From the IMG/VR virus record IMGVR_UViG_3300020463_000008, positions 1-64,000 of that record: a stretch of DNA of 64,000 nt; one strand, given 5' to 3'. Below are positions 8,764-59,898 of the stretch, in pieces. How positions within the stretch are numbered: position 1 is the stretch's first letter; every line of letters begins with the position of its first letter. The translations under genes and the position numbers were made by a program. Under the pieces are notes generated by a model, which saw only the letters and a program-made list of their open reading frames with translations, was not told the DNA's origin and searched no databases. The stretch comes from a virus.

Positions 8764-9952
8764 TTACTTCTATGACTTGCGACATACACTTACCACCAAA
8801 ACCAAAACTATTATTCAACATAGTTCTTTTCTTTTGCTCTTCAGGATAAATATCGTTTTCCCTCAGTAAAGTTCCGTGTATATCTATTTTAGATTCTTTT
8901 AAATTTTGAATATGTGGTACTACACCATTCCTCATGCTTTCAATAGCATAGCAACCCTCAAGAATACCAGATGCTGCAAGTGTGTGACCAATTTTACTTT
9001 TTGGTGCCCACATTTTAGTTCCTGGCATTATTTCAGAAACAGCTTCGTATTCAATAGGATCTCCTGCTATTGTACTTGTACCATGCGTACATACATAATC
9101 AACATTATCTACACCAGCATGTTTCATAGCATCTTGCATTGAAGTACGAGTACCAGTTCCTTCTGGGTTTACCATATCAACAGCATCAGATGCCATACCT
9201 GCTTTGTGTAATTTAGCATAAGATGTAGAGCCAAACTCTTTCATCTTTTCTTCTGATTGTAATATCATACAAGCACCACCATCTCCCATTAAGAATCCTT
9301 GTCTCCTATCGTCAAATGGCATTGACCAGTTTGCTAATGCACCTAGACAAGCGAAGTATTTAATTCCCATAGGGAAGTTAGCACAATCACCTGCTGTACA
9401 AATTACATAATCATATTCATCTACTAGTCGCATAGCATAATCAATATTGACCATTCCTGTAGCACAGGATGCGAAAGTTGCTGTAGATAAACCTTTAAAT
9501 CCATAGTAAGAAGTAATATGCATACAACCCATATCAGGGATTCTATTTACTGCTCTACGAGCATTACCTCTTTTCATGTACTTAATATATTCAAAGTACA
9601 CATCAATTCCTTCAGTATCGTTTGAAACAGTACTGGCAAGACAAGCAACATTTGGTTTGCGTTCTATACCTGCCATTTGCATAGCCTGTTCTGTTGTATT
9701 GCTCATCATCTTTTGAGCATTCGTCATACTTCTCCACATCTTTTTATCAAAGCCATCAGGCATGATAATTCTTTCTTCATCATGCATCGCTCCTCGATGT
9801 ATTACTAAGTGGAAAATTTCTTCTACTTGTTTTGCCATGCCAGGGATCTCACGACTGTAATCGTTTCCATCTAGCATTTTGTCGAAACACTCGTTAGGAC
9901 TTATTCCTAAGGCATCCGACATTCCATAACCAACCACATGCACAGGTTTCAT
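8756..9952 (-). CDS. fabF: Beta-ketoacyl-ACP synthase (KAS I/II, FabB/FabF)
   Basis: The 398-aa protein is full length for a condensing enzyme of type II fatty-acid synthesis. The Cys-His-His triad is intact: Cys163 in TFASCATGM, His290 in CTHGTSTIAGD and His323 in PKSKIGHTLAASG. The C-terminal NNSFGFGGKC is also canonical. It condenses malonyl-ACP with an acyl-ACP, extending the chain by two carbons. Within the window it can be matched with FabI (14392), AcpS (13407), a MaoC dehydratase (35946), an ACP domain (43440) and a desaturase (12523). FabD and FabG are not seen here. Confidence 0.95.
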   Translation of the reverse strand: MKPVHVVGYGMSDALGISPNECFDKMLDGNDYSREIPGMAKQVEEIFHLVIHRGAMHDEERIIMPDGFDKKMWRSMTNAQKMMSNTTEQAMQMAGIERKPNVACLASTVSNDTEGIDVYFEYIKYMKRGNARRAVNRIPDMGCMHITSYYGFKGLSTATFASCATGMVNIDYAMRLVDEYDYVICTAGDCANFPMGIKYFACLGALANWSMPFDDRRQGFLMGDGGACMILQSEEKMKEFGSTSYAKLHKAGMASDAVDMVNPEGTGTRTSMQDAMKHAGVDNVDYVCTHGTSTIAGDPIEYEAVSEIMPGTKMWAPKSKIGHTLAASGILEGCYAIESMRNGVVPHIQNLKESKIDIHGTLLRENDIYPEEQKKRTMLNNSFGFGGKCMSQVIEVNV

Positions 9953-12522: not shown

Positions 12523-13470
12523 CTATATTCTACTTCTATTTATATTCACTGCACCAATCTTTTCCAGGAATATAATAAAATATTGTGTAGGATCGTTTAA
12601 TCCTTTTCCGAAACTAGGATCTTTTGGATTGCTATGATGATACTCATGAGATCCTTCACCCCAGTTTATGAAACTTAAATACCATGGGACATTACGAATA
12701 TGTTGCTTTCCTCTTTTATCACTATGTTGCCAAGCATTAGTAATCCCCATTGACCATTGTCCTAAACCTGCACCAGCAAATGCTGCCCATGCAAAATTAA
12801 TTCCCCACTCTTGAATGTATAAGTATGGACCATCGTACCAATAAAAATGCGTTAAGTAATACCACAACTCTGGTAGCATAACTCCTAGTCCATTGGTGTA
12901 TGTTTCTACAATAATTCCCCATAACAACATTAATAAGTAAGCACCGAATATAGTAATACACATTGATTTAAAACTATTATCATGGTACCATCTAGCAGTT
13001 TCATTTCTAAGTAATCCTCTTGTAAATCTTAATGGTACATTTTCAAATGGTACATCCCATCTATGAGTTAAGGATCTTAAGAAACCAATTTGATGTGGAC
13101 TGTGTGGATCTCTTTCCTCGTCTAGATATACATGATGCATTCGATGTATTATTGCCCATGCTAATGGACTTCCGATGTTGCTTACTATACAAAGAGAGCA
13201 GAAGAAGTGTTCTAGCCATTTCCATTTTACAGTAATACTGTTGTGAGATAAACTACGATGTGCATATATTGTTATCGCCATTGCTCCAAAGAACCACCAT
13301 GCAAGAACATAAGGTACTAAGTCCCAACGACCAAATACTATTATCCCTAACAGGCACAACTGTGTCCACCACCAGTACCTGATACGAAAATTTATTTTAT
13401 AGGTTGTTAAGTGTTCGTCTCTAAAATTACTGAACCAATTACGCAACCTTTGAAATCCGATATTGAACAA
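12523..13470 (-). CDS. Fatty acid desaturase, membrane di-iron type
   Basis: The 315-aa protein has the three histidine boxes of delta-9 acyl desaturases: AHRSLSHN (HRxxxH), HRMHHVYLDEERDPHSPH and GSHEYHHSNP, separated by several membrane segments. It would introduce a double bond in acyl-CoA or lipid-bound acyl chains at the inner membrane. The best start is TTG at 13468-13470, because AGGAG lies 9 nt upstream and no ATG is available before residue 80; this gives a 64-bp overlap with acpS, implying coupled translation. It belongs with the phage fatty-acid genes. Confidence 0.92.
   Translation of the reverse strand: MFNIGFQRLRNWFSNFRDEHLTTYKINFRIRYWWWTQLCLLGIIVFGRWDLVPYVLAWWFFGAMAITIYAHRSLSHNSITVKWKWLEHFFCSLCIVSNIGSPLAWAIIHRMHHVYLDEERDPHSPHQIGFLRSLTHRWDVPFENVPLRFTRGLLRNETARWYHDNSFKSMCITIFGAYLLMLLWGIIVETYTNGLGVMLPELWYYLTHFYWYDGPYLYIQEWGINFAWAAFAGAGLGQWSMGITNAWQHSDKRGKQHIRNVPWYLSFINWGEGSHEYHHSNPKDPSFGKGLNDPTQYFIIFLEKIGAVNINRSRI
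12537..12544 (-). promoter_or_regulatory. Possible late promoter box TATAAATA
   Basis: The minus strand has an exact TATAAATA, the T4 late promoter core, within the last codons of the desaturase gene. If used, it would give a leader of about 170 nt holding both hairpins before the 96-aa membrane protein gene. The match is exact but short in AT-rich DNA. Confidence 0.3.
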
Positions 13471-13966: not shown

Positions 13967-14402
13967 CTCTTTCCTCCAGTATTGACAGCTCTCCTTTTTC
14001 AGGATCTACTGCGTATTTTATATTGTTAATCGTTTCAGTATCCATTTTTTGAGTTTCATGAATATCCCAAGCGACTCCCCTTACACCTTTTTGAAAAAAT
14101 CCAGGTTTGCCTTTATGGTCTTCAAGTACAACTTGGCAATATATTTTATGCTCTTCTATACTTGCCTGATTTGCATGAGCATCAGGTGCTGGTCTTTTTT
14201 CTTCTTTATCTTCCTCGAAGTGTATTTGTCTCTGTACATCAAGTTGATATAAAACATGATTAACAAAGTATCTAATAATTCCTTCGTCAAATAATTCATC
14301 TACTTTGTCAACTGAAGTATTCATAACAAAACCATTCAGTTGCATTTTAATCTTATTGTCTTTAAGTGTTGCCCACTTTCTATTTACTACATTACAAGTC
14401 AT
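13950..14402 (-). CDS. Hypothetical protein, 150 aa
   Basis: I do not recognise this protein. It is soluble and acidic with a central charged linker (FEEDKEEKRPAPDAHANQ) between two probable folded parts. It overlaps fabI upstream by 11 bp and the 69-aa gene downstream by 17 bp, so it sits inside the fatty-acid gene block. Confidence 0.65.
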   Translation of the reverse strand: MTCNVVNRKWATLKDNKIKMQLNGFVMNTSVDKVDELFDEGIIRYFVNHVLYQLDVQRQIHFEEDKEEKRPAPDAHANQASIEEHKIYCQVVLEDHKGKPGFFQKGVRGVAWDIHETQKMDTETINNIKYAVDPEKGELSILEERDEKSN

Positions 14403-15153
14403 CTAAACTCGGTGCTCCAATAATATTATAACCACAATCTACATAATGCGTTTCACCTGTCACACCAGAAGATAGGTCACTTAAAAAATAATATGCACTT
14501 CCTGCTAAATCATCGAGAGTTATATTTCGCTTCATAGCATTTACACCCTCAGCATACTTTAGCATATCCTTGCTACCTTTTACAGCCATAGCACTTGCTG
14601 TTTTAATTACACCAGCAGATATACAATTTACTCTTACACCATTACTGGCTACATCTTTTGCTAAGTATCTAACTGTAGATTCTAGTGCTGCTTTTACTAC
14701 ACCCATTACATTATAATTATCATAAACCCTACGAGCTCCATCATAACTGAGTGTCAAATAAGCACCACCCTCATTCATATATAGTAAACTATGCTTCACG
14801 ATTTGTATTAGAGAATAACATCCTACTGTCAAAGACTCAGAAAAGTTTTCTTGACTAATATCATAAAACTTTCCATCTAGTTCAGTAAAGTCAGTCATAC
14901 TCATTGCATGTACTACATAATCAATACTTTTAAAATGTTGCTTTATTTCCATAAAACAATTTCTTACATCCATAGCATTAGTGACATCGCACTTAACTGT
15001 ATGAGCCATAGGTGAAAGTCTAGTTATCTTTTTCTGTACTGAATTGTTTGGATAGGTAAAGATACATGTATATCCTTCGTCAATAAGTTTATTGGCGATA
15101 CCCCAAGCGATCGAGCGACTGTTCGCCACTCCCATAACAACAGCTATTTTCAT
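14392..15153 (-). CDS. fabI: Enoyl-ACP reductase FabI
   Basis: The 253-aa short-chain dehydrogenase follows FabI rather than FabG. The N-terminal MGVANSRSIAWGIA is the FabI cofactor loop, and YDNYNVMGVVKAALES gives the catalytic Tyr147 and Lys154, with the second FabI tyrosine Tyr137 in TLSYDGARR. It reduces enoyl-ACP with NAD(P)H, the last step of each elongation cycle. It is triclosan-target class, full length, with no truncation. The start overlaps the 88-aa gene upstream (ATGA). Confidence 0.95.
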   Translation of the reverse strand: MKIAVVMGVANSRSIAWGIANKLIDEGYTCIFTYPNNSVQKKITRLSPMAHTVKCDVTNAMDVRNCFMEIKQHFKSIDYVVHAMSMTDFTELDGKFYDISQENFSESLTVGCYSLIQIVKHSLLYMNEGGAYLTLSYDGARRVYDNYNVMGVVKAALESTVRYLAKDVASNGVRVNCISAGVIKTASAMAVKGSKDMLKYAEGVNAMKRNITLDDLAGSAYYFLSDLSSGVTGETHYVDCGYNIIGAPSLDDL

Positions 15154-17978: not shown

Positions 17979-18278
17979 TTAGATCTCGTTATTGATAATT
18001 TCGAACCATTGGTCTTTATCTACATCAAAATAGAACTCTTTACATGAATGTGCCCAGAAATCCACTATATGAGTTTGCTCATTATAGCTGATTGTGTAGT
18101 TTCCCATCTCATCTTTCCAGAATGGTAATGGTTCATCGGGAACAACATGCTGTACATAGTAAGCACACTCTTCAGCATTTTGCATAGGCATATCCCATTT
18201 AGAATGGAATACATCTCCAGCAGCAGTATAAGCAGTAAGGATTACAAAGAATATGGTTTCTATTTTTTCTACTAACAT
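17979..18278 (-). CDS. Small secreted protein, 99 aa
   Basis: The N-terminus (IETIFFVILTAYTAAGD) looks like a signal peptide. Two Cys, one in EECAYYVQHV and one in HSCKEFYF, may form a disulfide. The plan is similar to the 103-aa protein at 9949-10260: short signal, N-x-x-C-x-x-Y/V helix, second Cys near the C-terminus. It overlaps the cyclase gene by 7 bp, so it may be coupled to it. Function is unknown. Confidence 0.65.
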   Translation of the reverse strand: MLVEKIETIFFVILTAYTAAGDVFHSKWDMPMQNAEECAYYVQHVVPDEPLPFWKDEMGNYTISYNEQTHIVDFWAHSCKEFYFDVDKDQWFEIINNEI

Positions 18279-20113
18279 GGTTCGTATATGGTTATGAGTT
18301 CCTCTTTGCCCTTGACTTTAATTTTGTCAAGTTCTTTGGACTCAATAGTATTTAGGGCATCTTTGGTGTACTGTGAATATAGAGTCGTACAATTTTTATA
18401 ATTTCTTGTTTGTGCTTCTAATCTAGCAGCAAGGTTTACAGCATCTCCGATAACTGAATAATCAAATCTCATCTCACTACCCATGTTTCCTACAATACAT
18501 GTTCCTGTATTTACACCAGACCCAATATTAATCTCAGGCAATCCTTTTTCTTTATACATCTTTTTCAGTTCTTCAGTTTCTATTGCACATTCCATACTAG
18601 TCTTTACTGCCATCTCCGCATGGTTCTCACAATCTAATGGAGCATTCCAGAAAGCCATAATACAATCGCCCATGTATTTATCTATGGTGCCACCATTCTT
18701 CATAACGATCTTACTCATACGATCTAAGTAATCATTAATCAATAATACTAATCCTTCAGGATCGTCATTATTTTTAAAATATTCAGAGATAGGTGTGAAG
18801 CCAACTATATCCATAAACAAGAATGACATTTCTCTTTTATCTCCACCAAGTTTTAATTTGCTAGGATCTTTTTGTAGAATAGCAACCTGTCTAGGATCTA
18901 AGTATCTTTCAAACTGTTTTCTTATTTGTTGTTTTAAATTAAACTCTAATATAAATCTTGTAAAGGTAGAATGAAATCCTACTAAGAATATTGCTATCAT
19001 AAACCAAGATACATCTATCAACCAACCATACCAAGTAAATGCTAGATATGCTTTTACTCCTGCAGCAATTATTACAGTTGCTAAGTAAACTGCCAACCAT
19101 GCGTATGGTAAGAATCTACAAGCAAGTATAGTTATTATTGCCCAAACTATCATAGCAAGTAATTCAAGCAATGGTAAATAATCTACTCTAGTTATTTGCT
19201 CGCCAGATAAAACAGTTTGTAATGTTGAAGCAGTTATATAATGTGAATACTGTTCACCTCTTGGTGTAGCAATTATATTTGAAATACCAGCAGCAGTTGG
19301 CGATACGATAACAGTCTTACCAAATAATAATAAATCATTTAAATTGTTTTCTACATCCATCATTGACATAGTGTGGTAAACCTTATCGTGTCTTAACCAT
19401 ATTCTAGCATTCGCATCAGTTTCAATAGTAGCGAATCCTGGAACTCTCATAGCTTGAATACCAGCATCACCTGCTTTTACTTGATACGATGGGTCACCTA
19501 CTGCGACTCTAATAACTTCTATGGCTATACTAGGATATACATCTTCACCTATTCTCATTAATAGTGGTACTCTACGAACAACACCATCTATCTCTGGTGC
19601 AGTATTTACAACACCTACACCATTTGCTGATTGTCCCAACTCAGGTATTGGTCCAAGCATACCACCCCATTCAAACAAATAAGGTAAAGGATCGCCAATC
19701 TTAGCAACACCTCTTGGTACACCATTCTTATTAATATCATTAGTTCCTAGCTGAGCAATAACAGTTCCTGCTGTTAGATAATCTTTAAATACCCAGTCGC
19801 CATCTTCTCTATCTTTTTCTGAAAATAATATTGGGAATACTATTACACCTGCTCCAGCATCTCTTAATTTTTCTATTAGAAAAGCATAGTGAGATCTACT
19901 GAAAGGATATTGACCTTTGGCATCTAAGGTTGCTTCATCTATTTCAACTATTACTATATCCTCTGAAAATGTTTGTTCTTCAGATGCAAGTAAAAAGTCG
20001 AAAGACTTTAGTTTAATTATTTCTTTGAAGTCAGGATTTGAGAATCCTATGAGTGCCAGAATGGCAACAGTTATAAATGCACTAGTCCAGTGTGTTAGAA
20101 TCTTTTTTATCAT
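18272..20113 (-). CDS. CHASE2-domain class III adenylate cyclase
   Basis: The 613-aa protein has an N-terminal membrane anchor (about 8-25), a periplasmic CHASE2 sensor (about 30-300, with IVIVEIDEATLDAKGQYPFS), three membrane helices (about 325-400) and a class III cyclase domain (about 420-600). The cyclase has MDIVGFTPISEYF (metal Asp), KYMGDCIMAFW (second Asp, adenine-specifying Lys) and DYSVIGDAVNLAARLE (Asp for adenine, Asn and Arg for catalysis), so it should make cAMP and is complete. It sits just downstream of the curli-type genes and iscU, and overlaps the iscU end. A complete membrane-sensor cyclase is very unusual in a phage. Confidence 0.92.
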   Translation of the reverse strand: MIKKILTHWTSAFITVAILALIGFSNPDFKEIIKLKSFDFLLASEEQTFSEDIVIVEIDEATLDAKGQYPFSRSHYAFLIEKLRDAGAGVIVFPILFSEKDREDGDWVFKDYLTAGTVIAQLGTNDINKNGVPRGVAKIGDPLPYLFEWGGMLGPIPELGQSANGVGVVNTAPEIDGVVRRVPLLMRIGEDVYPSIAIEVIRVAVGDPSYQVKAGDAGIQAMRVPGFATIETDANARIWLRHDKVYHTMSMMDVENNLNDLLLFGKTVIVSPTAAGISNIIATPRGEQYSHYITASTLQTVLSGEQITRVDYLPLLELLAMIVWAIITILACRFLPYAWLAVYLATVIIAAGVKAYLAFTWYGWLIDVSWFMIAIFLVGFHSTFTRFILEFNLKQQIRKQFERYLDPRQVAILQKDPSKLKLGGDKREMSFLFMDIVGFTPISEYFKNNDDPEGLVLLINDYLDRMSKIVMKNGGTIDKYMGDCIMAFWNAPLDCENHAEMAVKTSMECAIETEELKKMYKEKGLPEINIGSGVNTGTCIVGNMGSEMRFDYSVIGDAVNLAARLEAQTRNYKNCTTLYSQYTKDALNTIESKELDKIKVKGKEELITIYEPC

Positions 20114-20518: not shown

Positions 20519-21922
20519 TTAGTTCTGTGTTGTGGATAAAGTACAGCCACCAGACTGTCCACATATTCCATCTACTGTATAATTTTGACTTGTACCACTA
20601 TTTTGTGTCAAATCAAAATCATATGAGTATCCCGATAAATCTACTTTTGCCCCATGGCTTCCTGCTCCATCTTGTGTGATGTCTACATCATGAGCACTAT
20701 TTCCTGTATCCAATAGTACATCAAGAAAATGTGAGCCAGTACCATACTGGAATATATCCACATCATTGCTATTATTATTTATATCAACAAATAAAGTCTT
20801 TGCTCCATTGTTGTGTTGATATGCTAATACATTGTTGCTACTAGCATCTATATCGATACTCATGAAATGTTTAGCATTAGAATCCCCACTGTTTTTTTGT
20901 ACTAAGGTTAGAGTATTACTATCACCATCTATATCAAACCACATTCTATGACCACCAGTATCATTAGCATCGTCCCCTTGTGATGTATTTACTGTATTAG
21001 AATCTCCAGTAATATCAAAAGCCAAACCATTATCACCACTACTTCCTGATGTTAAAATATTTCCTTGATTAAATGATAGAGTATTGTTGTCGCCTGAAAC
21101 TTGAGCATCACTTGACCAGTTAGTTCCTATGATAAAATTGTTATTACCAGCTTGTCTAACTGTTAAATCATTATTATCTCCTGAGATGTTTACTTTAACA
21201 CCTTCGCCAGTTGCTGATTGAGCAGTTGATTTTATAGTTGATTGACCAGAGCTGGGTGCTACAAGTACCTGTGGTTGAGCTGAAGAAAAATGTGCGTTGT
21301 TCATATCTAACCAACCAGATGTTGTATTAGTAGCATTATTACCATCAATTCTATAATGAATATCCATATTGGCAGAACCACCCCATTCATACCAGTTGAC
21401 TTGTATTGGATACCATTGACCACCAACACCAGAAAATGAACCATTAGAGTTCCAATATGTTGGACCTTGTTGTGCCCAGTCAGATATGACTGCTGTATTA
21501 TTAATATTTACTATAAGACCATCATCATTACGACCAGCAAAATATACTGTTGATGTTTGACCAGCTGTTCCTGGATGTTGCCAGTATCCTGTGATGACTA
21601 CCATTCTCTGTTGTGATCCATAATTATTATTATTAATAACTATGTTTCCACTATTCCAGTTATAATTTAAACTGTCAAGAGTACCAGTTCCTTGTGATGT
21701 ACCTACATAAGCTGGATTAGTATTATTACAGGTAGAGAGATATGAATTGTAATTAAAACAAGGTGCTTCTAAATAAGGTGCATGATGACTAATAGCAAAC
21801 ACCTCATAATTAAGAGTACCACCCCATGCTTTTTCACAGCCAAATATACTTAGAGCAAATAATACCCAAGCTGTTAGAATAACTTTAATTCCTTGTTTTG
21901 AAAAATCTTTAAAATCAATCAT
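20519..21922 (-). CDS. Secreted PA14-like and curlin-repeat protein, 467 aa
   Basis: A signal peptide (about 1-34, containing FALSIFGCEKAWGG) leads to a beta-rich module with VYFAGRNDDGLIVNINN and DIHYRIDG, which resembles PA14-type carbohydrate-binding domains. From about residue 245 the protein is a series of repeats with N/D/G-rich turns and Q-containing strands (NNDLTVRQAGNNN, SNDVDIFQYGTGSH, AHDVDITQDGAGSH), the curlin pattern. It ends with a Cys pair (GICGQSGGC). It could be an extracellular amyloid-like adhesin exported by the CsgG homologue. It overlaps the FecR-domain gene by 4 bp. Confidence 0.8.
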   Translation of the reverse strand: MIDFKDFSKQGIKVILTAWVLFALSIFGCEKAWGGTLNYEVFAISHHAPYLEAPCFNYNSYLSTCNNTNPAYVGTSQGTGTLDSLNYNWNSGNIVINNNNYGSQQRMVVITGYWQHPGTAGQTSTVYFAGRNDDGLIVNINNTAVISDWAQQGPTYWNSNGSFSGVGGQWYPIQVNWYEWGGSANMDIHYRIDGNNATNTTSGWLDMNNAHFSSAQPQVLVAPSSGQSTIKSTAQSATGEGVKVNISGDNNDLTVRQAGNNNFIIGTNWSSDAQVSGDNNTLSFNQGNILTSGSSGDNGLAFDITGDSNTVNTSQGDDANDTGGHRMWFDIDGDSNTLTLVQKNSGDSNAKHFMSIDIDASSNNVLAYQHNNGAKTLFVDINNNSNDVDIFQYGTGSHFLDVLLDTGNSAHDVDITQDGAGSHGAKVDLSGYSYDFDLTQNSGTSQNYTVDGICGQSGGCTLSTTQN

Positions 21923-23034
21923 TGGTTTTGTAAGATATTAATGACATTATCTTGTCCCCCTAATTCATAATCGTAAATTGTAAAATCGTTTTGTGTAAAT
22001 GAAATAACATAGCCATATTCTTTATCTAATCTTAATTCAAAAAAGTTTCCTGCACCCTCTCTAGAGTAAACCCATTCAGGATCTTCATCTAAAATTATAA
22101 TGCCAGTGACAGGATCTTTTCCTAGTTGTATATCACCAGTTCCTTTTTTCTTATCAAACTCGCTTCTCATAGCTTTGGCAAGTTCTTTATTTATCTGAGC
22201 CAAAATATCTACTAGAAAGTTTTGTTCTAAAAAATCTATATCTAAACCAGTAGTCCAAGTATCTTCTTCTTCCTCTAAGTAATCTATTTCTAAATCATCA
22301 AACTGTAGGAAGTCAATATCTAGTGCACTTGCTACTTGGTTATATGCTTTTTCTCTTTCTTGTCCTTCAGCTATCTCTCTTGGTTTGGCAACTATTAATA
22401 AGTTTCCAATCATCTCCTCATCTAAATTTAGTATGACTGGCTTCATAGGTTGACTTGCTATTGTATCAACTACTGTTGCCTGGAATGCTTGATTTAAAAT
22501 TACGAATCCAGCATCAGATTCTACAGCTATCTCACCAACATAACAAGCACCTGTTGTATCACAACTAGGCAATAATATAATAGTAGAAGATCCAACCTCA
22601 TCTACAGTCATAGTAAAGTCTGTTCCCCTTACAGCAATGGTTGCTGTTGGGGTGGTAATATTTACATTTGTTGCTGAGTTTTTTGCTATCTGACCAGAAG
22701 CATATCTTATTGTTCCGAGACTAGCTTTTAATGATAACTTCCCTGTCTTAGTATTAGGATCGTAAACAAATTCATCAATTACTAATTTACTATGACTTGT
22801 GACATCAACTCTGGTATCGTCAATAAACTCAATAGCAGTTTTACCATTACCAGTTTTAACTGTATCATAACTGAATACATCTACTTCTTTTTCAGTGGTG
22901 ACAGATTCGCCATCACTTTTTCTTTCTATACTACCATTTCCTTCATGAAGTGTCACCTCACCAATACTTGCCTTTGCTTCTTGAGAGCATAGTATAAGCA
23001 TGAACAAGATAGTTAATGGTAAGGCAAACTTCAT
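21919..23034 (-). CDS. FecR-domain periplasmic protein, 371 aa
   Basis: A signal peptide (about 1-22, ending EAKAS) precedes a FecR-type beta domain: DVFSYDTVKTGNGKTAIEFI, TRVDVTSHSKLVIDEFVYDP and VNITTPTATIAVRGTDFTM are family hallmarks. The C-terminal half is acidic and helical, then beta-rich, ending QDNVINILQNQ, itself reminiscent of a curlin half-repeat. FecR domains act as periplasmic sensors or surface-polymer scaffolds. It is tightly packed between a 37-aa gene and the PA14-curlin gene and is part of the curli-type block. Confidence 0.85.
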   Translation of the reverse strand: MKFALPLTILFMLILCSQEAKASIGEVTLHEGNGSIERKSDGESVTTEKEVDVFSYDTVKTGNGKTAIEFIDDTRVDVTSHSKLVIDEFVYDPNTKTGKLSLKASLGTIRYASGQIAKNSATNVNITTPTATIAVRGTDFTMTVDEVGSSTIILLPSCDTTGACYVGEIAVESDAGFVILNQAFQATVVDTIASQPMKPVILNLDEEMIGNLLIVAKPREIAEGQEREKAYNQVASALDIDFLQFDDLEIDYLEEEEDTWTTGLDIDFLEQNFLVDILAQINKELAKAMRSEFDKKKGTGDIQLGKDPVTGIIILDEDPEWVYSREGAGNFFELRLDKEYGYVISFTQNDFTIYDYELGGQDNVINILQNQ

Positions 23035-52386: not shown

Positions 52387-52953
52387 CTATTTTGCTTTTT
52401 TTGCTTTGATGTGTTTCGCTATTTTCTTAGCATATTCAGGCTTTAAGAAGTCTATTCTTGCCCATGGCTCTTTATTATATCCTTCTTCTTCTGCCCATCT
52501 CACAAAGTATCCTACTTCTTTACCATGTGCTTCAACTTCCCATGGGGAATCCCAATAGTCCATCTTCTTAGTATTATATGCTTTCTTCTTATAACGAGTT
52601 CTAAATCCATCAGAATACTCATACATATCACCAGATGCCCATTGTTTAATATGACACATTTCATGAGCAATAGTTTCTAGCATATGTCTTAACTTAGACT
52701 GTTCCTCTACTTGTATCTTAAATTTTTTTGGACGATATAAGTCATCATCAATCCAAGATAATCCCTGGACTTTTTCTTTAATGTATAAGTTCTTTTGAAT
52801 ATAGATGTTTATTGTGACAGATGTTCGGAGTCGAACATCCATGGTTTTTCTTGATACCCAGTGTGCAATGGATCTCACAAGTTTCCTCGTGTCCCTATCG
52901 CCACCTCTGACATTGATTATTGCTTTATCTCTGTACCAATTGTTTTTTGCCAT
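52387..52953 (-). CDS. SprT-like zinc metalloprotease
   Basis: The 188-aa protein has LETIAHEMCHIKQWASGDMY with the HExxH zinc site and a downstream Glu/His-bearing helix (WDSPWEVEAHGKEVGYF) that could provide the third ligand. This is the layout of SprT/WSS1-like proteases seen in phages, which in cells act on protein-DNA crosslinks; the role here is unknown. The start overlaps the kinase end by 29 bp. Confidence 0.82.
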   Translation of the reverse strand: MAKNNWYRDKAIINVRGGDRDTRKLVRSIAHWVSRKTMDVRLRTSVTINIYIQKNLYIKEKVQGLSWIDDDLYRPKKFKIQVEEQSKLRHMLETIAHEMCHIKQWASGDMYEYSDGFRTRYKKKAYNTKKMDYWDSPWEVEAHGKEVGYFVRWAEEEGYNKEPWARIDFLKPEYAKKIAKHIKAKKAK

Positions 52954-53506
52954 CTGCTATATTTAGTTTTTCCAAGATATGATTTATTAGGACTAATTGA
53001 TCCTCTGAATTGTTATTATTAAACTCCTCTATATAAGGCATGATGTCAAAGTTAGATAATATGTTATTTATCTTGGTTCTCCTCGATTTCAGGAACTTCT
53101 CGTCCTGATTGTCTGCTCTGGAGACATGTCTTTCATCTAGGGTACTTGGGTCTGCCTTCATGTAAATTATGCTCATATCGTGTCCCTGAGTAAGCATTTC
53201 TGTAAGAAATGAGCCTGAAAACAGTCGATCTCCCTCAAATACGATATTCACTCCCGATGGAGCATAAGAATCTTTAAACCATTCTATTGCCTTTGGCTGT
53301 ACTGCCATTGACAATCTATCAGTGCCACAGAACATGTGTGCTTCATTGAAATAATCTTTTCCGAGAACAATAGTATTAATGTCTTTACACCACATACCAT
53401 ATAATAGATCTGTAAGTTTTACATCTTCCCATTTATATGGTTTCATCCATTGTTTCATCAATGTTGATTTACCTGTTGCTGGTTCTCCACCAATCGCTAT
53501 AATCAT
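52925..53506 (-). CDS. P-loop nucleotide or nucleic-acid kinase
   Basis: The 193-aa protein starts with MIIAIGGEPATGKSTLMKQW (Walker A) and has DRLSMAVQPKAIEWF and FEGDRLFSGSF segments plus an Arg-rich lid (RTKI). It overlaps the HAD gene by one base, so a joint action is likely; T4 Pnk fuses a kinase and a HAD phosphatase in one chain, but these two do not clearly match it. A base-modification kinase is another possibility given the TET gene nearby. Confidence 0.78.
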   Translation of the reverse strand: MIIAIGGEPATGKSTLMKQWMKPYKWEDVKLTDLLYGMWCKDINTIVLGKDYFNEAHMFCGTDRLSMAVQPKAIEWFKDSYAPSGVNIVFEGDRLFSGSFLTEMLTQGHDMSIIYMKADPSTLDERHVSRADNQDEKFLKSRRTKINNILSNFDIMPYIEEFNNNNSEDQLVLINHILEKLNIADGKKQLVQR

Positions 53507-53940
53507 TATTCTCCTCCAGAGTCAAAGAAATCTTTATGTCTACAATTTTCTTTATCTACTAATTCATGCTGTAATAGTACACATGTGATATCAGGATTTA
53601 TTCTTTCGATCTCTTTTATTTGTATAGGATCGTCATCAAAATGTATTCCTATTTCTATCTCTCTTTGAACTCTTAACATCTTTATAACATTGCCTTTATG
53701 GATACCAGAACCTTTTCTAGTTTTATTTTCAAACCTTGCTGGATTCATAAAGACTTCATTCTTAATACCTTTTGCAGATAGCATAGCAGAAGTTTCATCC
53801 CACTCATCTATAGATCTACCTGTAATAATGACATCACTTTTTCCTGGATAAACACCATCGTGCTTACCCATATAGATAACACCATCAATATCAAAAGTAT
53901 TAATTTTAAAAGGATGCATGCTACTCATAATCAGTTTCAC
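53506..53940 (-). CDS. HAD-superfamily hydrolase-like protein, 144 aa
   Basis: FKINTFDIDGVIYMGKHDGV has the DxDG nucleophile motif, and GIHFDDDPIQIKEIERI has the acidic motif IV. It is short (core HAD only) and probably a phosphatase. It overlaps the kinase gene by one base and the inositol phosphate synthase by 20 bp. Substrate is unknown; inositol phosphate or a nucleic-acid phosphate end are the context-based guesses. Confidence 0.78.
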   Translation of the reverse strand: MKLIMSSMHPFKINTFDIDGVIYMGKHDGVYPGKSDVIITGRSIDEWDETSAMLSAKGIKNEVFMNPARFENKTRKGSGIHKGNVIKMLRVQREIEIGIHFDDDPIQIKEIERINPDITCVLLQHELVDKENCRHKDFFDSGGE

Positions 53941-55198
53941 CTTTTTGATAGGTGTATATTAAATTTTTAGCAATAGGATTGTTTACAGTTAATTGTGGTT
54001 CAGTCATCTTAGTAAGTTCTCTTCTAGATAAAGCATCACATTCAAACTTAGCATCTTCTGTTTTTAATTGTACAGGTGGAGTCTTTTGCGTCCAAGCACT
54101 TGGACCTCTTAAGAAACCAACTATATTCATTTCAGAAGCAACCTTACAGAAACGAATAGCTGATACAACTACACCTCCTGAGTTTGGCGAATCTTGTACT
54201 GACATCCTTGCTGACATTTCATATCTAGCACCACCAAAACCATAAGCAACTATATCTAAGTTGGCAATCTTATTATCAGAGCCAACATATGTTCCTCCAG
54301 GTTTTTGGAATACTGTTAAACTTGGACCAGCATATAAAGTCATTCCTGCAGTAGATTCATCTCTAACTACATTCTGACCTTTTAAAACATTCTCTTTAGA
54401 AATATGTTTAGATTTTAATCTTTCTTTATAAGCCATATTCAAGAAGTCAGTATTTGCTGTTCTTCCTGTTCTAATATTTTCTTGACCTTGTGTAGATCCT
54501 GCTGCCATATTCATTTGAATATGTTGCGTCACTTGTAAACCTGAATCCAACATCGCACCCTGTAATACTTCAGATAATCTAGAAGCACCCCATGCCGATC
54601 TCATATCAGATCCTACAATAGTAAGATTAGAGTCAATAAACTTTTGTTCTATGACTTTTGTTTTTTCAGTTTCAATAAGTGTTGGAATACAGTTTACGAA
54701 ATGAACACCAGCAAGTATTGCTGCATCTATATAGAACTCTGTTGCTTTTTCAGAACCAACAGGAAGATAATTTATAATTACATCAACCTTGTGGTTTTTT
54801 AATTTAGCAGCAACCTGTCCTTTAGATAAAGCAGTTTCTGCTCCTGTTCTAAATGAAACATTTTCTGGATAGTCAAGCATGTGTGAAGCAACACCATCTA
54901 GTTCTGGACTAGAATAAACCATACTGTCTTGTGATACACATGTATAATCTATTTCTTCTACATGATGCATAGCACAGTTTGGTTCTGCTCTTAATGCTTG
55001 TGCTAATGGTTTCCCAACTTTCCTAGGATCTACATCGAAGCCACAAACGAATTCGATATCATTTACAGTGTATCCTCCAATATCTGGATACATTAAACCT
55101 ATTTTATCTTGGGGATTTTGAATATAATATTGTACACCTTCAACTAATGACTTTGCACAATTACCAGTGCCAATGATGGCGACCTTAATTTTTGACAT
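53921..55198 (-). CDS. ino1: Myo-inositol-1-phosphate synthase
   Basis: The 425-aa protein converts glucose-6-phosphate to inositol-1-phosphate with NAD. The NAD-binding site VAIIGTGNCAKSLVEGVQYY and the motifs INYLPVGSEKATEFYIDAAI, GVHFVNCIPTLIE, VGSDMRSAWGASRLSEVL and DFLNMAYKERLKSKHISK match bacterial/archaeal INO1. It has a standard AAAGGAG ribosome site and its own promoter P9. The product is the precursor of phosphatidylinositol and other inositol compounds. I know of no typical role in T4-like phages. The following HAD and kinase genes could process the product. Confidence 0.92.
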   Translation of the reverse strand: MSKIKVAIIGTGNCAKSLVEGVQYYIQNPQDKIGLMYPDIGGYTVNDIEFVCGFDVDPRKVGKPLAQALRAEPNCAMHHVEEIDYTCVSQDSMVYSSPELDGVASHMLDYPENVSFRTGAETALSKGQVAAKLKNHKVDVIINYLPVGSEKATEFYIDAAILAGVHFVNCIPTLIETEKTKVIEQKFIDSNLTIVGSDMRSAWGASRLSEVLQGAMLDSGLQVTQHIQMNMAAGSTQGQENIRTGRTANTDFLNMAYKERLKSKHISKENVLKGQNVVRDESTAGMTLYAGPSLTVFQKPGGTYVGSDNKIANLDIVAYGFGGARYEMSARMSVQDSPNSGGVVVSAIRFCKVASEMNIVGFLRGPSAWTQKTPPVQLKTEDAKFECDALSRRELTKMTEPQLTVNNPIAKNLIYTYQKGETDYE

Positions 55199-55278: not shown

Positions 55279-55307
55279 ATTCTATACTAGAATTTCTTAA
55301 AAGTAAA
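55279..55307 (-). promoter_or_regulatory. Sigma70-like promoter (P9)
   Basis: The -35 TTTACT (55302-55307) and the -10 TAGAAT (55279-55284) have a 17-bp spacer TTTAAGAAATTCTAGTA. It drives ino1-HAD-kinase-protease through a leader of about 75 nt. Confidence 0.8.
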
Positions 55308-56481
55308 CCTCCAAGCCAACTTTTTCTCCTGCCATTTTTGCTTGATATGCATCAATACATTTGACTGCTTCTTTTTCAAAAGCACCCTTGTTGTAGAACC
55401 AATTAGGATCCATTCCAGTTTCCTTATACATATCTGGCATAAATGGATAATCTTCATGGAGATTAATCATCTGACCAGTCTTTTTACATAAATCTCTTAG
55501 GGCAAGACTTTCCCTTTTTTTCTGTACGAGTGGATGATGTTTAGCAACAGCATCTTCAAAGAAAGCATCATAGTTCACTATGCCTTCCCATTGTTCTTTT
55601 AAAAATGTTCCTCTAGAATAATGGTCACCTGAAGAGTGTCCACCATAATCGCCACCAAGCATTAGTTTCTTATATTGACATAGATGAGATTCTAAAAGAA
55701 AATTTGTAAGAACTTTAGAATTTTTATCTGATATAGAATCTTTGGCTTTAGCATAAATATATTTTTCTTCATTATGTACATTTTCCATATCATTACTTGA
55801 TAGCTTTGCACCTTTGGCTTCAATAAGATTATCCCAACCTTTTAAATAACAAAGACCAGATCTAACACTCCAGTTAGATTTGTCAGTAGCCAACATTGTT
55901 TCTGGCTCTAAAGGTACTTCAGCTGTTTCTTTTAATGCTTGACAAAATAACCATGTAGTCATTCTACCATATTTATGTATCTTCTGTGCTTCCTCATACA
56001 TATTAAAAAAAGATTGACTTGGGTCATCTACTAATTGATTGTCTACCCATGCTTTAATAGAACCATAAGGCATAATCAATTCTTGCATAGATTTTACTTG
56101 TTCAGCAATTCTACCTTTATTATATTTTGTATCACGAGCATATCTTTGTTTATCTAAATGCTCAACATTCCATTCTTCTAATTCTTTTATATTAATTTCA
56201 AATAGATTTGGGAAGTTCCAATATATTGCCCAAGCCATTTCTGTTTGATAAGTACAACCAAATATTAAAGAGTACCAGAGTTTCTGTTCCTCAGTCATAG
56301 GTTTTTGTGTAGGGGATTTATCGCCAGTTGCATCACGATAAGTGTTAGCTGGCATGTAGTGGTCAAGATCGTTATAAGTTAGTCGCCAATCTAACCATAA
56401 TAAGAATCCTTGTTCTCTATTCTCAGGGAGTCGCCAATCTTTATATTCTTTATCTTTATTATCTGGGTGTAAATATTTCAT
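55297..56481 (-). CDS. Unidentified protein next to TET gene, 394 aa
   Basis: I do not firmly recognise this protein. It is helical and Trp/Tyr-rich with two parts: about 1-150 (MTEEQKLWYSLIFGCTYQTE) and about 180-394. The C-terminal segment FLLESHLCQYKKLM, then a SGDHYSRGTFLKEQW stretch, weakly recalls the thymine-pyrophosphorylase-like (aGPT-Pplase) proteins of DNA hypermodification systems. It is the last gene of the run helicase, TET dioxygenase, FkbM methyltransferase, this gene, all with 1-4-bp overlaps, which supports a DNA-modification role. Confidence 0.55.
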   Translation of the reverse strand: MKYLHPDNKDKEYKDWRLPENREQGFLLWLDWRLTYNDLDHYMPANTYRDATGDKSPTQKPMTEEQKLWYSLIFGCTYQTEMAWAIYWNFPNLFEINIKELEEWNVEHLDKQRYARDTKYNKGRIAEQVKSMQELIMPYGSIKAWVDNQLVDDPSQSFFNMYEEAQKIHKYGRMTTWLFCQALKETAEVPLEPETMLATDKSNWSVRSGLCYLKGWDNLIEAKGAKLSSNDMENVHNEEKYIYAKAKDSISDKNSKVLTNFLLESHLCQYKKLMLGGDYGGHSSGDHYSRGTFLKEQWEGIVNYDAFFEDAVAKHHPLVQKKRESLALRDLCKKTGQMINLHEDYPFMPDMYKETGMDPNWFYNKGAFEKEAVKCIDAYQAKMAGEKVGLEVYF

Positions 56482-57209
56482 CGTTTATATAGAGTATCCA
56501 TACCCCATATGTTTCTGTACTTAACTTCTTCACCTAAGAACATTACTTGCTTATCTCCTGGGACTAAATTTAATTGTTCTTGTAAAGGTTTGAAACCTTG
56601 CTCAATAAATTTGGCTCGTTGATTGCTTTCATAATCTGATAGTATTCTATCTGACCAGTGGAACTCTAAAGACATCTGTTTGATACTTTCAGGAATAAAC
56701 CAATCTGGTTCAAAGATACGATATTCTTCACCCTCAACATCACACTTTAAATGTGTTGGTTGGTAAATATCAAATAATTTTTTTGCTTGTACTGTTGGAA
56801 CTTTGACTTGATTTTTTCTCATGTTCTTCGCAGCATTACTTTTTGGATTAGTAGTGCCTGAACAAAATTCTTGTTTACTTCCTGTTAGATATAAAGTTAT
56901 CTCAGGAATATCTTGAGTAGTGACTGCAGCATTAATTAAACAAAATCTTTCATCATGCCCTAGATTCTTTTCACATACTTCAAAATTTTCAGGATGACAT
57001 TCTACACCAATATATTGTTTTATATTTGTATCAAGTAGCATTCTTCCGAAAGCACCTATGTTCATGCCCCAGTCCATAACTATGGCACCATCAAGATTAT
57101 CAAAGTTTGAATAATTAGACAGGCATTGATTTACCATATCTTTATCTACATTAAGACCTTTGCCATCAATCTCACGAATGTATGTGTTTTTAAATATTCT
57201 ATAATCCAT
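56478..57209 (-). CDS. FkbM-type methyltransferase
   Basis: The 243-aa protein has the SAM-binding motif GAIVMDWGMNIGAFGRMLL, IGVECHPENFEVCEKNL after it, and LKCDVEGEEYRIFEPDW, the FkbM hallmark. FkbM enzymes usually methylate sugars or small molecules. Phage copies have no assigned target. Position between TET and the 394-aa protein suggests a step in DNA-base or glycan decoration. Overlaps both neighbours by 1-4 bp. Confidence 0.85.
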   Translation of the reverse strand: MDYRIFKNTYIREIDGKGLNVDKDMVNQCLSNYSNFDNLDGAIVMDWGMNIGAFGRMLLDTNIKQYIGVECHPENFEVCEKNLGHDERFCLINAAVTTQDIPEITLYLTGSKQEFCSGTTNPKSNAAKNMRKNQVKVPTVQAKKLFDIYQPTHLKCDVEGEEYRIFEPDWFIPESIKQMSLEFHWSDRILSDYESNQRAKFIEQGFKPLQEQLNLVPGDKQVMFLGEEVKYRNIWGMDTLYKR

Positions 57210-58510
57210 TAAAAGAAATCTGCTAGAGAGGAAGATTGACTGTCAGGGTGGTATTGAGAAACCACATCACTTCCTAGTTTACTTTCAAGAAAGTCATACC
57301 ATTCTTTCTCATCCCACATCCCAGGACTAATACCATTCCAAAGTTTTCTTTGTAGAGGATGTTCTTTATTAGTTCTACGAGCAATAACATAATCTTCACG
57401 AGCTCGTTCATAATCCCAGCTTCCTAGTTCTAACATCTTCTCTCTGAAATAACATACGAAAGATATTCGTTCAGCACTTTCATCTTCCATAACCATTGGT
57501 GTATTACCATGTATTCCTTCATGATTATTAATTAATAACAAATCTCCAGGACGAATATTAATAGCAACTTTATATTCAGGAAGTATTAGATACCCACCAG
57601 AATATTTACCATTATTTGATACGACTGTAAGATTAGAGAATCCTTCATGTAAATCACCAAAGTCTCGATGATAAGCTGTTCTGAAAGTTTTATTAACAGT
57701 AGCAGTAGTAAATGGTGTCCCAGGAATAATAAACTTTGAATCTAGTTTATCACATGCTTCCATTTGTTTACCATACCTGACTGGCAATAGTTCTTCAAAT
57801 CCTTTAGATAATTGTTGTAAGAAAGGGAATCCTTGTTTAAACTTCTCAGGATTATCTCTAGTGAAAGTTGTAGGACGACCAAAAGGAATACGAGGATATC
57901 TATCAAAGAATCCTGCGATACCTGAGAAAACTGAATTAGCATAAGAAGTTGTAGATGTTAATTTATCATTTACTCTTGTTGCTTCTGTAATCATTTCATC
58001 TCTAGGCAATACTCTTACTTCCTCAACCCAGTTTTCAAATACGAAATCTTCTTCAGCTACTTTCTGTGCCAACCAGACTTTACCACGACTGTCATCGGCA
58101 ATCTTTTCTCTACCTTTATATTCTTGTCGTATAGCTTCTACAGGATCCGAGCCATCAAGTGTAGCTGATGGTGACATAAAATATTGTAGTAAAGCATTAT
58201 GATAATTAGTGACCCAATCTCTAGTTCCTAGAGCAACTGTTTTTTCACTACCTGCTGCGAGACCACGATTCTCAGTGGCACCTGCTGCTTCACGCAAACC
58301 ATTATATGCTTCATCTTGTTGTTCTTGTGTAAACCAATTTTTTCTAAACTTAAATATAATATTGGCTTCAGAGTTTTCTTCACCCATAGGAGTGGGTGCA
58401 TAAAAGTCGCAATCCCAATCACACAATAATTCATAATCATTTTCGTCCCCAAATAATCCTAGCTTGTCTTCACAATCAAATTTCTTTGGTGCTGTTATTA
58501 CTTTTGTCAT
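57209..58510 (-). CDS. TET/JBP-type DNA base dioxygenase
   Basis: The 433-aa protein has, in residues about 265-360, the TET/JBP core: VNKTFRTAYHRDFGDLHEGF (His281, Asp283), YSGGYLILPEYKVAINIRPG, DLLLINNHEGIHGNT (His334) and AERISFVCYFRE (Arg348). These bind iron and 2-oxoglutarate. Known phage members oxidise 5-methylpyrimidines in DNA. The N-terminal 260 residues are a phage-specific extension. The C-terminus ends SSSLADFF, like the SLEDFF end of the phage DNA polymerase and T4-type sliding-clamp-binding tails, so it may ride on the clamp. It overlaps the helicase gene by 4 bp. Confidence 0.88.
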   Translation of the reverse strand: MTKVITAPKKFDCEDKLGLFGDENDYELLCDWDCDFYAPTPMGEENSEANIIFKFRKNWFTQEQQDEAYNGLREAAGATENRGLAAGSEKTVALGTRDWVTNYHNALLQYFMSPSATLDGSDPVEAIRQEYKGREKIADDSRGKVWLAQKVAEEDFVFENWVEEVRVLPRDEMITEATRVNDKLTSTTSYANSVFSGIAGFFDRYPRIPFGRPTTFTRDNPEKFKQGFPFLQQLSKGFEELLPVRYGKQMEACDKLDSKFIIPGTPFTTATVNKTFRTAYHRDFGDLHEGFSNLTVVSNNGKYSGGYLILPEYKVAINIRPGDLLLINNHEGIHGNTPMVMEDESAERISFVCYFREKMLELGSWDYERAREDYVIARRTNKEHPLQRKLWNGISPGMWDEKEWYDFLESKLGSDVVSQYHPDSQSSSLADFF

Positions 58511-59898
58511 ACTTTGAACCCTTCTAAATTCATTCTTTCACCAGCTTCACTTTTGTCGAAAACAGCTCCGACATCTTTTTCTTCTTGCCCTGCGTCCATT
58601 ATATTAGTTTGTGCTGATGACTCTACATTATATAATCGCATCTTATTCTTATCAACTCCGACCACGAATCTTTTATAATAGTTTGGATCAGAATATCTAT
58701 TCTTAAGTTGCTTAATCATCCATTGTCCCATATTGTCTAGTTCTTCACTAGCAATAATTGCGAACATTAAGTCAGCAGTTGCTGGTAAACCAAAAGACTC
58801 CGAAGTATCTTCAAGACCAACATCTGTATTATTATAACCACCTCTTGTCGTTTGAGTAGCTGATACGAGAGGACAATTATATTCAACTGCCAGTCCTCTA
58901 AGTTCTTCGGCAATAGATTTAATGTAAGAATATGTATTTACATTAGATCCCATCTTTAATCTTTGTGAAGCACAGATATTCAAATAGTCAATGAATATAA
59001 TATCTGGCTTGAAACCTTTTTTCATTTTTAGTTCTTCAAGTAATGCTCTGAAGTGACCAGCATGAGCAGACCCTGTAGGATATTCTTTTACAATTAATTT
59101 ACCTTTGTTTGTATCTTTAATTTTATTAATTCTTTTACTGAAGATCCCATGGTCAATAACTTTAATTTCATCCATACCCAAGTTCAATAAGTTTGCGTCA
59201 ATCCTTTCAGATATTTTTTCTTCAGCCATCTCCATAGTAATATAAAGAACATTCATACCCTCAGCCAAAACTGATGAAGCATGATGACACATAAACAAAG
59301 ATTTACCAACACCTGTACCAGCCATAGCAATGTTAAGAGTTTTTTTACTCAAGCCACCTCTAGTAATAGTATTCAATAAATCAATATCAAACTTAATCTT
59401 CTCTTCAACTTTATGATAAAATTCAAACCTGTCGTCAGCATCTTCTAGATAATCATGACCAACAGAATTATCAAAACAAACACCCAAAGCATCCTGCATC
59501 ATTTTAGGAATAGCATCTTTGGTATGTACTTTATCTCTACCATCAATAATCTTAATAGCATCCATAACAGTATTATATACTGCTCTTTCCTTACACCATT
59601 CTTCAGTCTTATCATATAACCAAGTTTCATTTACTGGATTATTTTCTTTTAATTCTGAAACTTTATCTTGAATAGATTTATGGTCGTTTTCAAATAAGTC
59701 TTTACGATTAAAGACCTCGTTGGCAATCATGTCTGGATTAGGAACATTATTATATGTAAGGAATAATTTTGTATATTCCTCAAACAATATTCTTTCATTG
59801 CGTTCTTCAAAGTATTCAGGCTTGATGAATGGAATCACCTTGCGTGAGAACTCGTCATTATGTAATAGATTATTTAAGATAGTTTCTTCAATACGCAT
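58507..59898 (-). CDS. 41: Replicative DnaB-type helicase (T4 gp41 role), leaderless start
   Basis: The 463-aa protein has NIAMAGTGVGKSLFMCHHAS (Walker A), then LYITMEMAEEKISERIDANL, PDIIFIDYLNICAS (Walker B) and PLVSATQTTRGG (motif H3/H4), all DnaB-like. It unwinds the fork on the lagging strand with the primase at 36446. The ATG at 59896-59898 has no Shine-Dalgarno and lies 7 nt after the -10 of P10. Residues 1-150 are the helical N-domain. Confidence 0.95.
   Translation of the reverse strand: MRIEETILNNLLHNDEFSRKVIPFIKPEYFEERNERILFEEYTKLFLTYNNVPNPDMIANEVFNRKDLFENDHKSIQDKVSELKENNPVNETWLYDKTEEWCKERAVYNTVMDAIKIIDGRDKVHTKDAIPKMMQDALGVCFDNSVGHDYLEDADDRFEFYHKVEEKIKFDIDLLNTITRGGLSKKTLNIAMAGTGVGKSLFMCHHASSVLAEGMNVLYITMEMAEEKISERIDANLLNLGMDEIKVIDHGIFSKRINKIKDTNKGKLIVKEYPTGSAHAGHFRALLEELKMKKGFKPDIIFIDYLNICASQRLKMGSNVNTYSYIKSIAEELRGLAVEYNCPLVSATQTTRGGYNNTDVGLEDTSESFGLPATADLMFAIIASEELDNMGQWMIKQLKNRYSDPNYYKRFVVGVDKNKMRLYNVESSAQTNIMDAGQEEKDVGAVFDKSEAGERMNLEGFKV

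What the first reader, a model, noticed from the sequence alone, without database searches (positions are those of the whole stretch)
56478..59898. TET/JBP dioxygenase operon with helicase and FkbM methyltransferase
A helicase-TET-FkbM-394-aa gene run has 1-4-bp overlaps and one promoter. The TET protein keeps all catalytic residues (His281, Asp283, His334, Arg348). The unidentified 394-aa protein weakly resembles thymine-pyrophosphorylase-like transferases of hypermodification systems. A nearby unit holds a kinase and a HAD protein. Together these suggest the phage carries an oxidised and perhaps further decorated base in its DNA. No 5mC methyltransferase is seen in the window, so the substrate could be thymine.
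Basis: partly seen in the sequence, partly recalled or inferred. Interest (0 to 1): 0.8.

Follow-up and report, generated by a model that had tools for sequence, protein, structure and literature searches.

The report
Phage genes for inositol-decorated DNA bases
A marine T4-like phage carries a six-gene set that most likely oxidises thymine in its DNA and then attaches a ring-shaped sugar alcohol (inositol) to it, and the two inositol-making genes turn up, virtually always, inside three quite different kinds of phage DNA-modification gene sets.

Summary
The TET/JBP gene is real: PF12851, E = 7e-23, with H281, D283, H334 and R348 invariant. The neighbouring helicase is ordinary T4 gp41. The "unidentified" 394-aa protein is ADDT (PF18724, 4e-20). 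Its predicted fold has one meaningful PDB match, the 5-phosphomethyl-dU glycinyltransferase PUGT.

Two observations make this more than a known cassette. First, a MIPS search blind to context gave 42/42 dereplicated viral loci inside DNA-modification cassettes of three chemistries (TET/ADDT, gp42-type 5hmC, 7-deazaguanine). The synthase tree needs 24 switches between them, and cellular synthases show no such partners. Second, on 32 TET+ADDT+kinase loci, presence of the synthase needs 1 change on the ADDT tree but 5 on the TET tree and 6 on the kinase tree. So the transferase tracks the synthase; the other two steps do not.

Best model: T -> 5hmU -> phosphate ester -> inositol ether, perhaps O-methylated by FkbM. 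The product would have the same mass as base J. The chemistry is inferred. No paper found mentions it; the main computational survey could not be read.

The parts
57209..58510 (-). TET/JBP 2-oxoglutarate/Fe(II) dioxygenase, 433 aa; proposed to oxidise thymine in DNA to 5-hydroxymethyluracil
   Evidence: PF12851 6.9e-23; H281/D283/H334/R348 invariant in 17 relatives; weak PDB match to CcTet, E 0.33
56478..57209 (-). FkbM-family methyltransferase, 243 aa; proposed O-methylation of the attached ring
   Evidence: PF05050 1.3e-6; in the out-of-sample set it lies near the synthase in 13/42 loci, 3 of 13 in cassette A and 10 of 18 in cassette B
55297..56481 (-). ADDT (amino acid:DNA transferase family), 394 aa; proposed transferase that swaps the base phosphate for the cyclitol
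   Evidence: PF18724 4.4e-20; AF2 model pLDDT 89.6, best PDB fold 8z2n, 5-PmdU glycinyltransferase PUGT, prob 1.00, E 8.9e-3, next unrelated hit E 0.59
53921..55198 (-). myo-inositol-phosphate synthase (MIPS/Ino1), 425 aa
   Evidence: PF01658 8.9e-10; PDB 1gr0 M. tuberculosis Ino1 3e-54 over residues 3-386; D198, K310, D336 and K372 align with Mtb D197, K284, D310 and K346
53506..53940 (-). small capless HAD phosphatase (<=144 aa), overlaps MIPS by 20 bp; proposed inositol-phosphate phosphatase
   Evidence: phrog_415 polynucleotide kinase 1.1e-7; HAD motifs D17xD19, T40GR, K82, D103D104 invariant in 15 homologues from cassettes A, B and C; found only in loci that have MIPS
52925..53506 (-). 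P-loop nucleotide kinase; proposed kinase of the base hydroxymethyl group
   Evidence: PF18751 Ploopntkinase3 1.6e-8, Walker A GEPATGKS; present in ADDT cassettes with and without MIPS
58507..59898 (-). T4 gp41-type replicative helicase: neighbour, not part of the modification system
   Evidence: phrog_19 3.2e-129
52387..52953 (-). SprT-like (weak) protein that bounds the exchangeable cassette on the far side: neighbour, not part
   Evidence: kept next to three alternative cassettes in near-identical backbones L146, L140, L147

Best explanation
The cassette makes a hypermodified thymine. Shown by sequence: a TET dioxygenase, a PUGT-fold ADDT transferase, an inositol-phosphate synthase with its catalytic residues, a HAD phosphatase with all its motifs, a P-loop nucleotide kinase and an FkbM methyltransferase, in one run of co-oriented genes. 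Inferred: TET oxidises T in DNA to 5hmU; the kinase phosphorylates the hydroxymethyl group; MIPS makes inositol phosphate from glucose-6-phosphate; HAD removes the phosphate, before or after transfer; ADDT displaces the base phosphate with an inositol hydroxyl, giving a 5-(inosityloxymethyl)uracil ether; FkbM may O-methylate the ring. TET and kinase are generic steps, ADDT carries the specificity, and MIPS-HAD is a mobile supply module for the decoration that phages also couple to 5-hydroxymethylcytosine (gp42-type) and 7-deazaguanine cassettes.
For: Family and fold matches. Context-blind second MIPS scan: 42/42 dereplicated loci in modification cassettes (A 13, B 18, C 11), HAD nearby in 32/42. 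Cassette-B hydroxymethylase is T4 gp42-like, 8e-70; cassette-C partners are QueC, QueE, FolE, QueD-like and DpdA-like. MIPS tree: 24 switches of cassette type. 80 MIPS loci from cellular assemblies: no partner genes except one phage contig in a MAG. On 32 TET+ADDT+kinase loci the MIPS label needs 1 change on the ADDT tree (0/500 shuffles), 5 on the TET tree and 6 on the kinase tree. MIPS-less ADDT cassettes carry glutamine amidotransferase and GNAT genes instead. No C5-MTase in any TET phage searched. A relative in culture, Caulobacter phage Cr30, keeps TET-ADDT-MIPS-HAD-kinase in that order.
Against: No biochemistry; the modified base has never been measured. PF18724 is named for amino-acid transfer, and no inositol transferase of this fold is known to me. 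Cassette C has no ADDT, so a different attachment step would be needed there. HAD was not found beside MIPS in 10/42 loci. The MIPS family also contains cyclopentane-cyclitol synthases (6k96, 2.7e-28). Some long branches; the trees are quick searches.
Confidence: 0.6

Rival explanations
1. ADDT attaches an amino acid (glycine, serine or similar) to phosphorylated 5hmU, as its family name says, and MIPS-HAD does something separate, such as counter-defence or diverting glucose-6-phosphate, and only shares the anti-restriction island.
For: PF18724 name; PUGT, the nearest solved fold, is a glycinyltransferase; ADDT occurs in Ackermannviridae-type phages, whose base is 5-(2-aminoethoxy)methyl-dU (PMC6449724, PMC11721090).
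Against: MIPS presence follows the ADDT tree exactly and not the TET or kinase trees; amidotransferase/GNAT genes occur with the other ADDT clade; MIPS-HAD sits between ADDT and the kinase in compact cassettes; all 42 unselected viral MIPS loci lie in modification cassettes.
Confidence: 0.2
2. Same architecture, but the MIPS homologue makes another cyclitol (e.g. a five-membered ring as in 6k96) or inositol phosphate itself is the attached group.
For: 6k96 five-membered-cyclitol-phosphate synthase is the second PDB hit; window-type MIPS carries a 15-aa insert absent from cellular MIPS; queuosine, a cyclopentene-bearing 7-deazaguanine, is a chemical parallel for cassette C (own knowledge).
Against: Much closer to canonical Ino1 (3e-54 against 2.7e-28); catalytic lysines and aspartates kept; the insert is missing in most cassette C and in many cassette A members.
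Confidence: 0.12
3. The modified base is cytosine: TET acts on 5mC.
For: Phage TETs acting on 5mC have been described (own knowledge; the paper is not held); MIPS also pairs with gp42-type 5hmC cassettes.
Against: No PF00145 gene in this 131-kb record or in any TET-phage record searched, including three deposited as complete (Cr30, DLP6, C48C1), while the same search finds it in cassette-B phages.
Confidence: 0.12
4. Not a modification system: a DNA-repair or host-interaction operon, as the public annotation 'SNF2 DNA repair protein' suggests.
For: Annotation of the homologues in Cr30, DLP6 and S-CBWM1.
Against: No SNF2 or helicase domain in the protein; partners belong to base-hypermodification families.
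Confidence: 0.03

Closest known systems
5-NedU / 5-NeOmdU / alpha-putrescinylthymine pathways (phages M6, ViI, phiW-14)
   Same: hydroxymethyl-U in DNA, kinase-made phosphate ester, displacement by a PUGT/ADDT-fold transferase (PMC6449724); ViI-type phages carry ADDT and an ether-linked product
   Different: those put 5hmdU in through the nucleotide pool; here no thymidylate-synthase-type hydroxymethylase exists in the record, TET would do it in the DNA, and the nucleophile supplier is an inositol-phosphate synthase plus phosphatase
Phage TET/JBP systems with TET-associated glycosyltransferases (TAGT, PF20691)
   Same: same TET; in near-identical backbones the cassette between TET and the SprT-like gene is swapped between TAGT and ADDT-MIPS-HAD-kinase
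   Different: decoration by a kinase/transferase route rather than by a sugar-nucleotide glycosyltransferase
Base J (JBP1/2 + glucosyltransferase)
   Same: TET/JBP oxidation of T, then a C6 polyol added; predicted nucleoside formula identical to dJ (C16H24N2O11)
   Different: ether to inositol rather than a glucoside; no glycosyltransferase in the cassette
7-Deazaguanine phage DNA (DpdA/Que)
   Same: MIPS-HAD or MIPS lies in these cassettes too (Menderavirus phage Moby; L110, L222, L228)
   Different: different base and insertion chemistry; there MIPS is noted only as a bacteria-like ORF (PMC9025141)
5cxmC / CmoX-CmoY (PMC12783734)
   Same: a C5 handle on a pyrimidine followed by attachment of a small molecule
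   Different: carboxymethyl handle and amide ligation; unrelated enzymes

Membership tests
TET/JBP dioxygenase (PF12851) | profile match above the curated cut-off | tested here: met
   81.1 bits against 34.9
TET/JBP dioxygenase (PF12851) | HxD...H iron site and 2OG-binding Arg conserved | tested here: met
   H281, D283, H334, R348 invariant in 17 sequences
TET/JBP dioxygenase (PF12851) | oxidises 5-methylpyrimidine in DNA | not testable with these tools
   needs an enzyme assay
ADDT (PF18724) | profile match above the cut-off | tested here: met
   72.8 bits against 26.2
ADDT (PF18724) | PUGT-like fold | tested here: met
   8z2n prob 1.00, E 8.9e-3, TM 0.46/0.60; no comparable other PDB hit; a named viral ADDT model matches at E 3.3e-10
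ADDT (PF18724) | transfers an amino acid | not testable with these tools
   co-variation with MIPS argues for a different nucleophile in this clade
Myo-inositol-phosphate synthase | full-length homology to a characterised enzyme | tested here: met
   1gr0 3e-54, residues 3-386
Myo-inositol-phosphate synthase | catalytic Asp/Lys residues (recalled for Mtb Ino1: D197, K284, D310, K346) | tested here: met
   window D198, K310, D336, K372; the corresponding columns are invariant among 5 diverse phage MIPS
Myo-inositol-phosphate synthase | converts glucose-6-phosphate to inositol phosphate | not testable with these tools
   needs an assay
M6/ViI-type thymidine hypermodification | thymidylate-synthase-like hydroxymethylase supplying 5hmdU | tested here: not met
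   no PF00303 match at E<=10 in the 131-kb record
M6/ViI-type thymidine hypermodification | 5hmdU DNA kinase with HMUDK helical domain (PF18723) | tested here: not met
   the kinase here is PF18751; no PF18723 match among the cassette proteins scanned; the rest of the genome was not tested for it
5mC-dependent phage TET system | phage C5 cytosine methyltransferase | tested here: not met
T4-type 5hmC system | gp42 dCMP hydroxymethylase | tested here: not met
   PF00303 absent; present in cassette B phages instead

The most novel reading that the evidence does not exclude
Inositol (a cyclitol) is a DNA base decoration: a mobile MIPS-HAD module has been exchanged many times among phages to decorate three different bases (TET-made 5hmU, gp42-made 5hmC, 7-deazaguanine), with a dedicated clade of ADDT as the inositol:DNA transferase in the TET branch. 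Such nucleosides would have the same mass as glucosylated ones and could already have been misread as hexosylated bases.
Probability: 0.5. Interest if true: 0.88.

Novelty: new variant of a known kind. Interest (0 to 1): 0.76.

Why it matters
It would show that phages treat 'handle' chemistry and 'decoration' chemistry as exchangeable modules, and it gives a direct test: Caulobacter phage Cr30 is in culture. It would also warn that mass-only calls of 'hexosylated' bases may hide inositol, and it would assign a function to phage inositol-phosphate synthases, so far annotated as stray bacterial genes.

Tried and rejected
Helicase as part of the system: rejected, T4 gp41. Single promoter: not above chance. 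Cytosine as TET substrate: disfavoured. 'SNF2 DNA repair' annotation: no such domain. ADDT profile against PDB sequences: no hit; only fold comparison worked. ADDT against cassette-B HMUDK-helical protein: hhalign 10% probability, E 0.003, and a weak glycosylase/PUGT-like fold; homology not claimed. A MIPS insert as marker of a new activity: absent in most cassette C and in many cassette A members, dropped. Literature: searches for inositol with phage DNA modification found nothing relevant; Iyer 2013, Lee 2022 and Burke 2021 are not held, so prior mention of MIPS there cannot be excluded. The first MIPS set (33 loci) is partly selected through TET/ADDT seeds, so weight is put on the context-blind second set. 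The UvsX-anchored control is small: 1/8 loci after strict dereplication, 6/15 when the window's own kin are kept.

Full report
WHAT IS THERE. The window is the first 64 kb of a 131,091-bp linear virus record of T4-like make-up (gp41, UvsX, UvsW, gp43-gp47 and regA recognised). On the minus strand, between the gp41 helicase and a SprT-like gene, lie TET (58510-57209), FkbM (57209-56478), ADDT (56481-55297), inositol-phosphate synthase MIPS (55198-53921), HAD (53940-53506) and a P-loop kinase (53506-52925). Overlaps are 1-29 bp except for one 98-bp gap between ADDT and MIPS. The helicase is the ordinary replicative one (phrog_19, 3e-129), and the single promoter is not supported.

IDENTITIES. 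TET: PF12851 6.9e-23. ADDT: PF18724 4.4e-20. MIPS: PF01658 8.9e-10. Kinase: PF18751 1.6e-8. FkbM: PF05050 1.3e-6 (all). MIPS aligns over its whole length with M. tuberculosis Ino1 (1gr0, 3e-54), with positions equivalent to D197, K284, D310 and K346 kept (the catalytic role of those residues is recalled). The HAD protein keeps all four HAD motifs, invariant in 15 homologues. An AlphaFold2 model of ADDT (pLDDT 89.6) has one meaningful PDB match, the 5-phosphomethyl-dU glycinyltransferase PUGT (prob 1.00, E 8.9e-3; next unrelated hit E 0.59). That places ADDT at the step where a base phosphate is displaced by a nucleophile.

WHICH BASE. No C5 cytosine methyltransferase (PF00145) was found in the 131-kb record, nor in any of the TET-phage records searched, including Cr30, DLP6 and C48C1, which are deposited as complete genomes. 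The same search finds it in three cassette-B phages. No thymidylate-synthase-type hydroxymethylase is in the record. Thymine is therefore the favoured TET substrate; this is inference. The record itself may be incomplete.

THE SYNTHASE BELONGS TO DNA MODIFICATION. Viral MIPS loci seeded with the window protein showed three settings. A: TET-(FkbM)-ADDT-MIPS-HAD-kinase. B: gp42-type dCMP hydroxymethylase (8e-70 to T4 gp42), dCMP deaminase, MIPS, HAD, and a protein with the 5hmdU-kinase helical domain (PF18723). C: 7-deazaguanine genes. To test this out of sample, a second scan used a MIPS alignment led by the Stenotrophomonas phage Moby protein and blind to context. It gave 77 loci; all 42 dereplicated ones fall into A (13), B (18) or C (11), with HAD nearby in 32. 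The cassette-B helical-domain family was first noticed as a MIPS neighbour, so part of the B count rests on its independent Pfam match and on gp42. In the annotated phage collection (50,697 records) MIPS occurs only in Cr30 and one group of Stenotrophomonas phages, 18 records; Cr30 has cassette A and the one Stenotrophomonas record read, Moby, has cassette C. Among 80 loci from bacterial and archaeal assemblies the same profiles found no partner gene except in one phage contig inside a MAG. On the MIPS tree the cassette type switches 24 times, so the module has moved between base chemistries repeatedly without leaving them.

THE TRANSFERASE TRACKS THE SYNTHASE. On 32 loci carrying TET, ADDT and kinase (23 with MIPS, 9 without), the label 'has MIPS' needs one change on the ADDT tree (0 of 500 shuffles as low, mean 8.0), but five on the TET tree and six on the kinase tree (a first run with 24 ADDT rows gave the same for ADDT). 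Near-identical phage backbones swap the block between TET and the SprT-like gene: FkbM-ADDT-MIPS-HAD-kinase (L146), another ADDT with kinase (L140), or a TET-associated glycosyltransferase PF20691 (L147). Several MIPS-less ADDT cassettes carry a glutamine amidotransferase, an amidoligase-like protein (by eye) and a GNAT acetyltransferase. This is what one expects if TET and kinase are generic, ADDT chooses the nucleophile, and the neighbouring genes supply it.

MECHANISM. T -> 5hmU (TET) -> phosphate ester (kinase) -> displacement by an inositol hydroxyl (ADDT); inositol from MIPS and HAD; possible O-methylation by FkbM, which accompanies MIPS in cassettes A and B. Ether formation in phages of this kind has a precedent: ViI-type phages carry ADDT and 5-(2-aminoethoxy)methyl-dU (PMC6449724, PMC11721090). 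The predicted nucleoside has the formula of base J. Shown: family, fold, motifs, synteny and co-variation. Inferred: every reaction, the identity of the group attached, and the base.

LIMITS. No chemistry has been measured. Cassette C lacks ADDT, so its attachment step is unknown. Some trees are quick searches with long branches. Viral contigs are fragments, so absence of HAD or other genes there is weak evidence. The main computational survey of such systems (Iyer et al. 2013) could not be read, so it may already list MIPS as a neighbour; none of the papers found discusses inositol with phage DNA modification.

Noticed in passing
window 18272-20113 (-): 613-aa CHASE2 + adenylate/guanylate cyclase protein (PF05226 2.7e-39, PF00211 4.6e-19), with a FecR-domain protein nearby (21919-23034): a signalling pair unexpected in a T4-like phage.
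   Followed up: no
window 8756-9952, 12523-13470, 14392-15153 (-): Beta-ketoacyl synthase, fatty-acid desaturase and enoyl-ACP reductase (6.2e-70) genes: a fatty-acid biosynthesis set in a phage record.
   Followed up: partly
L006:8258-8923 and 8911-9798 (-) (record 72258-73798): Sulfotransferase-like and GT-A-like (DGDD) proteins by eye; no Pfam hit. They could add further decoration.
   Followed up: partly
L048 and L004: TET without ADDT, next to a UDP-galactopyranose mutase (PF03275 2.5e-52 in L048; L004 copy by eye) and, in L048, an NAD-dependent epimerase: points to galactofuranose-type glycosylation of the TET product.
   Followed up: no
phage records KF301602, KU682439, MG450654: TET/JBP homologues are annotated 'SNF2 DNA repair protein'; the window homologue has no such domain.
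   Followed up: yes
L332: A Planctomycetaceae MAG contig (NHBP01000004.1) carries a complete cassette B and is probably a phage contig binned into the MAG.
   Followed up: no
window MIPS (53921-55198), just before the DFLNM motif: 15-aa insert (AAGSTQGQENIRTGR type) in window-type and most cassette-B MIPS, absent from cellular MIPS and from the cassette-C loci other than L110.
   Followed up: partly
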